DNA of 64,000 bases from Thermoplasmatales archaeon (GTDB lineage Archaea; Thermoplasmatota; E2; DHVEG-1), in NCBI GenBank assembly GCA_030672305.1, contig DAOVGR010000014.1:1-64000 (forward strand). The letters run 5' to 3'. Under the pieces are notes generated by a model. The model did no database searches, was not told where the DNA came from, and saw nothing but the letters and a program-made list of their open reading frames with translations. Shown piece after piece: positions 2,191-3,001 of this stretch (position 1 is its first letter; each line of letters opens with the position of its first letter). Made by a program: the position numbers and the translations under genes.

Positions 2191-2199
2191 TTATAAATA
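2191..2199 (+). promoter_or_regulatory. TATA box of the DUF5678-like gene
   Basis: TTATAAATA lies about 30 bases before the ATG at 2225. No ribosome binding site precedes that ATG, so this arrangement fits a leaderless or nearly leaderless archaeal transcript. Confidence 0.55.
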
Positions 2200-2224: not shown

Positions 2225-2416
2225 ATGAAGCAAGAAAACATATTAAAGAAGTTTTCTGGTGAATGGCTTTTGTTATTCAACGATGAAATAGTAGATCATA
2301 GTGCTAACGTTGAAGATATACTAAAATTGGCTGAAGAAAAATTCCCAGCAGATAAATTTCCAGACGACCAAATTAAGATATCAAAGGTATTAGATGGAAG
2401 ACTAAGAGATTTTTAA
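2225..2416 (+). CDS. small DUF5678-like protein, partner of the adjacent aspartic protease
   Basis: A 63-residue protein of the form helix, then GEWLLLFNDEIVDHSANVEDIL, then a lysine-rich helix and a final short strand. This layout (a GxWl-x5-E-v-h core followed by a helix) matches what I remember of DUF5678, a small archaeal and cyanobacterial family. A TTG lies one codon before the ATG; the ATG is preferred. It is followed after 78 bases by a retropepsin-like protease gene on the same strand. As I recall, DUF5678 genes often sit beside such protease genes, so the two probably act together. The biochemical role is unknown. Confidence 0.66.
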   Translation: MKQENILKKFSGEWLLLFNDEIVDHSANVEDILKLAEEKFPADKFPDDQIKISKVLDGRLRDF

Positions 2417-2494
2417 TATTTGAATTAAATTTTAATTTATGTGTATTAAAATATCAAAAGTATTATCTTGAGATATTCATTTACATTGCTTCTT

Positions 2495-2893
2495 ATGTCA
2501 GAACCAATGTTTATTTTCAAATACTTTCGATATCCTGTTGTTCCCGTTAAATTCTATTATAAGGATCAAGAAACTCCTTTTATTGATGCTTTACTTGACT
2601 CTGGCGGAGATTTTATAGTAATTCCAATGCCTATTGCACGGTATCTAGGATTAAGATTAAAAAAAGCTGGTGATGTTGATACTGCAGGGGGAACAACTTC
2701 TCTCTTTAAAGCAACATTAAGCATGCTTATGGGTAATAAACAAAAAAACGCAGTCTATAACAATATTCAGATACATGTTTCTGGAAGAAATGACATACCT
2801 GTGTTACTAGGAAGACATCCAATTTTTGAAGATTATGAGATTATCTTCAAAAAACAAAAAAATCAACTTATTTTAAAGTCACATAATCCATAA
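2495..2893 (+). CDS. retropepsin-like aspartic protease (clan AA)
   Basis: A protein of about 132 residues with the single-domain retropepsin pattern: a catalytic ALLDSGG motif with Asp near residue 35, the hydrophobic stretch after it (FIVIPMPIARYLGL), a glycine-rich flap region (AGGTTS), and the downstream PVLLGRHPIF segment that corresponds to the conserved h-h-G motif of the fold. Such proteins work as homodimers, each giving one Asp. The frame is open to a TTG at 2468, but the ATG codons at 2495 or 2507 are more likely starts; no clear ribosome binding site decides between them. No signal peptide is seen, so it should be cytosolic. The substrate is unknown; the upstream DUF5678-like gene is the likely partner. 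Confidence 0.8.
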   Translation: MSEPMFIFKYFRYPVVPVKFYYKDQETPFIDALLDSGGDFIVIPMPIARYLGLRLKKAGDVDTAGGTTSLFKATLSMLMGNKQKNAVYNNIQIHVSGRNDIPVLLGRHPIFEDYEIIFKKQKNQLILKSHNP

Positions 2894-2907
2894 ATTATAA
2901 ATATAGA

Positions 2908-2994
2908 GATTGGTATAGCGGGTAGAATACTTCACTGTTAATGTTGATTAGAGTGAGATATATAAAAATAATGATTTAAAGGTTGAGTCCCGGC
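2908..2994 (+). pseudogene. decayed tRNA-Asn-like sequence
   Basis: The stretch from about 2909 reads like the D arm and anticodon arm of a tRNA-Asn: TTGGTATAGCGGGTAGAATA followed by CTTCACTGTTAAT, with GTT in the anticodon position. A T-arm-like fragment, GGTTGAGTCCCGGCC, follows at about 2980. The acceptor strands do not pair, the 5' half of the T stem is missing, and about 35 AT-rich bases separate the two pieces. A 9-base stem with one mismatch can form between 2927-2935 and 2953-2961. I read it as a decayed or disrupted tRNA gene, not a working one; an unusual intron-bearing tRNA cannot be fully excluded. Confidence 0.45.
2958..2968 (+). promoter_or_regulatory. TATA box for tRNA-Lys and probably the RNA polymerase operon
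   Basis: ATATATAAAAA is centred about 38 bases before the mature tRNA-Lys 5' end, allowing a short processed leader. There is no good TATA element in the 37 bases between the tRNA and rpoH, so this promoter may serve the whole operon. Confidence 0.5.
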
Positions 2995-3001
2995 CTATTA
3001 T

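What the first reader, a model, noticed from the sequence alone, without database searches (positions are those of the whole stretch)
2225..2893. DUF5678-like protein paired with a retropepsin-like protease
A tiny protein and a single-domain aspartic protease lie in order, with a TATA box and no other neighbours. The pairing suggests a regulator/protease or toxin-antitoxin-like module of unknown purpose.
Basis: partly seen in the sequence, partly recalled or inferred. Interest (0 to 1): 0.5.

Follow-up and report, generated by a model that had tools for sequence, protein, structure and literature searches.

The report
Paired small protein and retropepsin-like protease
Two adjacent archaeal genes encode a tiny protein of unknown function and an HIV-protease-like enzyme; the same pair, in the same order, recurs across archaea and bacteria and looks like a protease with its own dedicated control protein, which gives a nameless protein family a testable role.

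Summary
Window 2225-2416 encodes a 63-aa DUF5678 protein and 2495-2893 a 132-aa single-domain retropepsin-like protease, with a conserved TATA box in front. The pairing is not chance. In 293 genomes of the phylum, 98 of 119 DUF5678 hits have a retropepsin hit next on the same strand, always downstream, with none in any other arrangement. The window's own genome has a second, distant pair. The pair recurs in Thermoplasmatota, Micrarchaeota, Diapherotrites, Nitrososphaeria, Planctomycetota, Acidobacteriota and others.

The catalytic D-[S/T]-G motif is kept in 83 of 85 distinct pairs, both genes are under strong purifying selection, and partner divergence is correlated. AlphaFold2 models of two unrelated pairs, read as one chain, give pTM 0.81 and 0.78, more than undocked halves should give. 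Some DUF5678 partners carry antitoxin-type DNA-binding domains.

Best reading: a two-gene control module in which DUF5678 binds and most probably restrains its cognate protease, in a toxin-antitoxin-like layout. Binding and inhibition are inferred, and toxicity is untested. In the window's family a conserved 15-bp element, 27 nt before the protease start, looks like a separate protease promoter. No paper or model found here describes the pair.

The parts
2191..2199 (+). TATA box TTATAAATA of the module, 25 nt before the DUF5678 ATG (probably a leaderless transcript)
   Evidence: sequence; TATA-like sequence at the same distance in most of 17 relatives compared by eye
2225..2416 (+). DUF5678 protein, 63 aa; predicted helix-strand-strand-helix-strand-helix
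   Evidence: PF18929 31 bits over cut-off; dN/dS 0.04-0.07; model secondary structure
2417..2494 (+). Expanded spacer between the two genes, holding a relic of the ancestral DUF5678 3' end (ISKVLS in another frame); in many relatives the genes are 0-13 nt apart or overlap
2453..2467 (+). Conserved element ATCAAAAGTATTATC, 27 nt before the protease ATG; candidate separate promoter (BRE/TATA-like) of the protease
   Evidence: kept in most aligned relatives whether coding or not; the only exact copy in the whole genome
2495..2893 (+). Single-domain retropepsin-like aspartic protease, 132 aa, LLDSGGD active site and LLGRHPIF motif
   Evidence: PF13650 over cut-off; nearest solved fold Rickettsia retropepsin 5c9f, TM 0.70; dN/dS 0.06-0.10

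Best explanation
This is a two-gene protease-control module. The small DUF5678 protein, made first from the shared operon, folds into a compact domain that docks on its own retropepsin subunit and most probably keeps it inactive, or unable to form the active homodimer, until a signal removes or displaces it. Freed retropepsin then cleaves unknown cellular targets. The layout is toxin-antitoxin-like: small neutraliser first, enzyme second. In some relatives the DUF5678 protein also carries a DNA-binding domain, as an autoregulating antitoxin would. In the window's family the protease also seems to have its own promoter. Shown: genes, order, conservation across domains, an intact catalytic motif, purifying selection, correlated partner divergence. 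Predicted only: direct docking. Inferred: inhibition, signal, targets.
For: 98/119 DUF5678 hits followed by a retropepsin, gap mostly under 150 nt, order never reversed; genome-level co-occurrence 68 both / 6 / 17 / 202. The same pair in most of 48 DUF5678 loci found by a scan of all species and in most copies in 12 genomes behind those loci. Apparent solo proteases of the strong class turn out to have a divergent small gene upstream: 1 of 76 lacks it, against 16 of 117 small genes that lack the protease. Mantel r 0.85, 0 of 2000 permutations; D[ST]G in 83/85. pTM 0.81 and 0.78 for two unrelated pairs, against about 0.56-0.58 estimated for undocked halves and 0.76-0.79 for docked. VAPB_antitox- and HTH_17-DUF5678 proteins directly upstream of retropepsins.
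Against: No experiment. Predicted docking does not say inhibition. The pTM estimate is my own; coordinates and PAE were not available, and the linker was artificial. The window protein has no DNA-binding domain. The window pair is vertically inherited next to rpoH/rpoB, unlike most mobile toxin-antitoxin genes, and no clear copy was found on plasmids, phages or viral contigs. Some DUF5678 subfamilies stand alone.
Confidence: 0.55

Rival explanations
1. Protease-cleaved regulator (works like ImmA/ImmR): DUF5678 is the regulator and the main substrate; on a signal the retropepsin cleaves it, relieving repression or releasing an active fragment.
For: Direct docking is predicted. DUF5678 fused to HTH or VapB-like domains upstream of retropepsins in some genomes. 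Many DUF5678 C-termini are hydrophobic, the kind of sequence retropepsins cut.
Against: Most DUF5678 partners, the window's included, have no DNA-binding domain. No conserved cut site was identified. The C-terminus differs between subfamilies.
Confidence: 0.2
2. Obligate subunit: DUF5678 is a chaperone or activating/adaptor subunit that completes or targets the retropepsin, rather than an inhibitor.
For: Strong protease hits almost never occur without the small gene (1 of 76) while the reverse is common. Small gene first suits co-translational assembly.
Against: Known retropepsins work as plain homodimers. Solo DUF5678 subfamilies exist. Antitoxin-type DNA-binding fusions are less expected.
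Confidence: 0.17
3. Anti-phage defence module with a protease effector.
For: The proteases weakly resemble PADLOC candidate families PDC-M08B and PDC-M52B. MNT/HEPN genes lie 2 kb from the second pair.
Against: Low scores; DUF5678 matches no PDC-M08 or PDC-M52 partner model. The window pair is a syntenic neighbour of rpoH/rpoB, not in a defence island.
Confidence: 0.06
4. Mere hitchhiking: two unrelated genes kept adjacent by vertical inheritance of the locus.
For: In nine genomes the whole metK-to-rpoB order is conserved.
Against: The pair has moved as a unit to other neighbourhoods (L058-L064), exists as a distant second copy in the same genome, and recurs in bacteria.
Confidence: 0.02

Closest known systems
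Pfam PF18929 DUF5678
   Same: Window protein scores over the curated cut-off; the family is widespread in archaea and present in bacteria.
   Different: No function is assigned; its constant retropepsin neighbour is not described in any paper found.
Single-domain prokaryotic retropepsins (Rickettsia APRc 5c9f; Pseudomonas RimB and RloA, PMC12239564)
   Same: Same fold, D-S/T-G active site, single domain expected to dimerise.
   Different: RimB/RloA are paired with ATP-grasp (RimK/RloC) genes, not with DUF5678; RloA is secreted while no signal peptide is apparent in the window sequence (inspection only).
Type II toxin-antitoxin modules (VapBC and others)
   Same: Small upstream gene, short spacing or overlap, enzyme downstream, multi-copy in some genomes, antitoxin-type DNA-binding fusions in some relatives.
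   Different: No protease of this kind is among the classical toxins (own knowledge); toxicity and neutralisation are untested; no clear plasmid or phage copies found.
ImmA/IrrE metalloprotease with XRE repressor
   Same: Protease gene next to a cognate regulator gene.
   Different: Different protease class (aspartic, not zinc) and unrelated partner.

Membership tests
DUF5678 (PF18929) | Match to the curated profile over its cut-off | tested here: met
   31.0 bits against 23.2
Retropepsin-like aspartic protease (clan AA) | D-[S/T]-G active-site motif and later hydrophobic-hydrophobic-Gly motif | tested here: met
   LLDSGGD and VLLGR in the window; Asp and Gly invariant in 32 aligned members; 83/85 distinct pairs
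Retropepsin-like aspartic protease (clan AA) | Retropepsin fold | tested here: met
   Model matches 5c9f at E 1.1e-6, TM 0.70 on the target length
Retropepsin-like aspartic protease (clan AA) | Proteolytic activity as a homodimer | not testable with these tools
   Needs purified protein
Type II toxin-antitoxin module | Two adjacent co-directional genes, small partner upstream, short spacing | tested here: met
   98 pairs, order never reversed; spacing often -4 to +13 nt
Type II toxin-antitoxin module | Antitoxin binds toxin protein directly | tested here: inconclusive
   AlphaFold2 single-chain models pTM 0.81 and 0.78; prediction only
Type II toxin-antitoxin module | Antitoxin DNA-binding domain and autoregulation | tested here: not met
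   None in the window protein; present in relatives L189, L200, L202
Type II toxin-antitoxin module | Enzyme toxic alone, neutralised by partner | not testable with these tools
   Needs expression assay
ImmA/IrrE-XRE module | Zinc metalloprotease (HExxH) next to an XRE repressor | tested here: not met
   Protease is a clan AA aspartic type; partner is DUF5678
RimB/RloA operon | Retropepsin next to an ATP-grasp RimK/RloC gene | tested here: not met
   Neighbours are DUF6015, metK, tRNA-Lys, rpoH, rpoB

The most novel reading that the evidence does not exclude
A previously undescribed, cross-domain family of toxin-antitoxin-type modules in which the toxin is a retropepsin-like protease and DUF5678 (with divergent relatives below Pfam's threshold) is the universal neutralising domain, plugged onto different DNA-binding domains in different lineages.
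Probability: 0.35. Interest if true: 0.8.

Novelty: new variant of a known kind. Interest (0 to 1): 0.6.

Why it matters
DUF5678 has no known function and cellular retropepsins of prokaryotes are mostly unexplained. A near-invariant two-gene pairing across archaea and bacteria, with predicted direct docking, turns both into one testable question: does DUF5678 control this protease? If it inhibits, it would be a natural protein inhibitor of the enzyme fold to which HIV protease belongs, and a protease-based toxin-antitoxin-like module.

Tried and rejected
Chance adjacency and simple hitchhiking: rejected. Virus or plasmid cargo: no clear relatives in the viral contigs, phage or plasmid collections searched; only a weak 26%-identity protease match on a Nostoc plasmid, with a small overlapping ORF upstream of it. 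Known defence-system member: only weak hits to PADLOC candidate proteases. Natural fusion as proof of interaction: one single ORF joins both domains (L209:1512-2135), but the usual protease start lies in another frame, so it may be a frameshift and is not used as evidence. A DUF5678 alignment of wide diversity was too divergent to scan all species; a narrower one worked. The Mantel correlation is partly species history, although it persists among divergent pairs (r 0.56). The strong-protease class is defined by a profile built largely from DUF-paired members, which favours finding the partner.

Full report
WHAT IS THERE. The window holds a DUF5678 gene at 2225-2416 (63 aa, PF18929 31.0 bits, cut-off 23.2) followed on the same strand by a retropepsin-like protease gene. 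The longest protease ORF begins at TTG 2468, but alignment with orthologues puts the start at ATG 2495, giving 132 aa ending at 2893. The protease passes the Pfam Asp_protease_2 cut-off (26.1 against 24.3) and keeps the LLDSGGD active site and the VLLGR motif. A TATA box, TTATAAATA at 2191-2199, stands 25 nt before the first ATG and has a TATA-like counterpart at the same place in most relatives printed, so the transcript is probably leaderless. The neighbours are not empty: metK and a DUF6015 gene diverge upstream, and tRNA-Lys(TTT), rpoH and rpoB follow. The phylum is Thermoplasmatota, inferred because a same-phylum genome (G281, L068) carries a DUF5678 protein identical to that of a named DHVE2 archaeon (L110).

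BOTH GENES ARE REAL. Against three relatives dN/dS is 0.04-0.07 for DUF5678 and 0.06-0.10 for the protease, with dS near 0.8-1.9.

THE PAIRING IS NOT CHANCE. Searching the same 293 genomes of the phylum for PF18929 and for a protease profile gave 119 and 141 (merged) hits. In 98 cases the protease follows the small gene on the same strand, nearly always within 200 nt between hit edges; no case of another order or orientation appeared. At genome level 68 have both, 6 only DUF5678, 17 only the protease and 202 neither (Fisher p 8e-43; genomes are related, so this number overstates independence). The window's own genome carries a second pair at C3:34261-34868 whose protease is only 28% identical, and the second DUF5678 groups with the DUF5678 partners of the related proteases. 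A scan of one genome per species found 48 DUF5678 loci; a protease follows in most of them, including Micrarchaeota, Diapherotrites, Nitrososphaeraceae, Cenarchaeum, Syntrophoarchaeum, Planctomycetota, Latescibacterota and a gammaproteobacterium. Twelve genomes behind those loci carry 1 to 12 DUF5678 copies, most again with a protease.

The pair moves as a unit. Nine genomes including the window share the full metK-DUF6015-DUF5678-protease-tRNA-rpoH-rpoB order, and four more share it as far as their contigs reach; in others the pair sits elsewhere, still paired. Of the strong protease hits without a DUF5678 hit, nearly all turned out to have a small divergent relative directly upstream, below Pfam's cut-off; only G024 lacks one there, and its DUF5678 gene is on another contig. 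By my count 1 of 76 strong protease hits lacks the small gene while 16 of 117 small genes lack a protease (Fisher p 0.003). The counts were made by hand from those outputs, and the protease profile was built largely from paired members, so this is supportive and not proof.

PARTNERS DIVERGE TOGETHER. For 85 distinct pairs the identity matrices correlate with r 0.85, and none of 2000 permutations came near (largest 0.13). Part of this is species history; among pairs below 60% identity r is 0.56. The catalytic D-[S/T]-G is kept in 83 of 85. Aligned more widely, Asp and Gly of the motif are the only invariant residues.

PREDICTED CONTACT. In the window the two ORFs are in the same frame, so reading TAA as Gly gives DUF5678, a linker and the protease in one chain. 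With 60 aligned sequences AlphaFold2 gave mean pLDDT 86.7 and pTM 0.81, with only the linker disordered. A second, unrelated pair (L129) gave 87.1 and 0.78. I estimate that undocked halves would give about 0.56-0.58 and docked ones 0.76-0.79. This suggests confident docking but does not show where, because coordinates and PAE were not available. The protease part matches Rickettsia retropepsin 5c9f (E 1.1e-6, TM 0.70) and retroviral proteases.

TOXIN-ANTITOXIN FLAVOUR. In several genomes the DUF5678 domain is the C-terminal half of a longer protein with an antitoxin-type or excisionase-type DNA-binding domain: VAPB_antitox in L202 (a Nitrososphaeraceae genome) and HTH_17 in L189 (a gammaproteobacterial bin), each directly upstream of a protease, and RHH_1 in L200, where no protease follows. 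Such an architecture, DNA-binding domain followed by a toxin-binding domain, is that of classical antitoxins (general knowledge). L202 is one of the two proteases with an altered motif (DSA). The window protein has no such domain.

A LIKELY SEPARATE PROTEASE PROMOTER. The 15-mer ATCAAAAGTATTATC lies at 2453-2467, 27 nt before the protease ATG. In relatives with tightly spaced genes the same DNA encodes the end of DUF5678 (ISKVLS) with nearly the same codons; in the window lineage a duplication has apparently given DUF5678 a new, diverged end, and the old segment, now non-coding, is still unchanged although neutral sites are close to saturated. Its distance to the start codon matches that of the DUF5678 TATA box, and it occurs exactly once in the genome. 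I infer a protease promoter (CAAAAG as BRE, TATTAT as TATA); an RNA-level role is not excluded.

HOW IT MOST LIKELY WORKS. DUF5678 is made with or before its protease, docks on it and restrains it until a signal removes it; the free protease cuts unknown targets. Rivals: DUF5678 as the cleaved regulator, or as an activating subunit. A defence role has little support, and hitchhiking is refuted.

KNOWN OR NEW. A full-text search of the held open-access papers found DUF5678 in one unrelated paper and no paper holding both 'retropepsin' and 'toxin-antitoxin'. Described bacterial retropepsins RimB and RloA are paired with ATP-grasp genes instead (PMC12239564). NCBIfam has no model for the small protein. 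PADLOC holds candidate families that the proteases resemble weakly, but the DUF5678 proteins tested match no PDC-M08 or PDC-M52 model. I therefore call it a new variant of a known kind.

Noticed in passing
L046:3868-3972 (G000:C3:33867-33971) and 52 other places in the window's genome: A C-terminal tail like RTVFHPLLLRFFERFPNIFPLLRYLLGL ends several large, apparently secreted proteins; 53 matches in the genome, at the very C-terminus in the cases read. No NCBIfam sorting-signal model matched. It could be an undescribed surface-sorting or anchoring signal.
   Followed up: partly
window 2894-3001: Between the protease stop and tRNA-Lys a TATA-like box is followed by about 90 nt conserved in 8 genomes (TAGCGGGTAG...CACTGTTAAT...GGTTGAGTCCCGGCC); no Rfam or ARAGORN hit and little covariation. 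Perhaps a degenerate tRNA or small RNA.
   Followed up: partly
L046:6516-7534: A winged-helix plus MntA-like nucleotidyltransferase gene overlapping a HEPN gene, 2 kb from the second DUF5678-protease pair: MNT/HEPN-type toxin-antitoxin candidate with an unusual HTH fusion.
   Followed up: partly
L087:1366-1650, L108:2624-2860, L221, L222; also L106 and L223: DUF5678 subfamilies that stand alone without any protease, the latter two upstream of a subtilisin-like gene in L106 and a similar large ORF in L223; DUF5678 may have protease-independent roles.
   Followed up: partly
L101:1583-2804: A solo DUF5678 gene followed by a UPF0175/VapB-like gene and a PIN-like gene (by inspection), i.e. next to a different toxin-antitoxin-like pair.
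   Followed up: no
L209:1512-2135: Single ORF joining DUF5678 and the protease domain in a one-contig genome; the usual protease start is in another frame, so it may be a frameshift.
   Followed up: partly
G296 (Chloracidobacterium, L187, L195, L200, L204, L206-L208): Twelve DUF5678 copies in one bacterial genome, most with extended N-termini, one pair in tandem, one next to a nucleotidyltransferase-like gene.
   Followed up: partly
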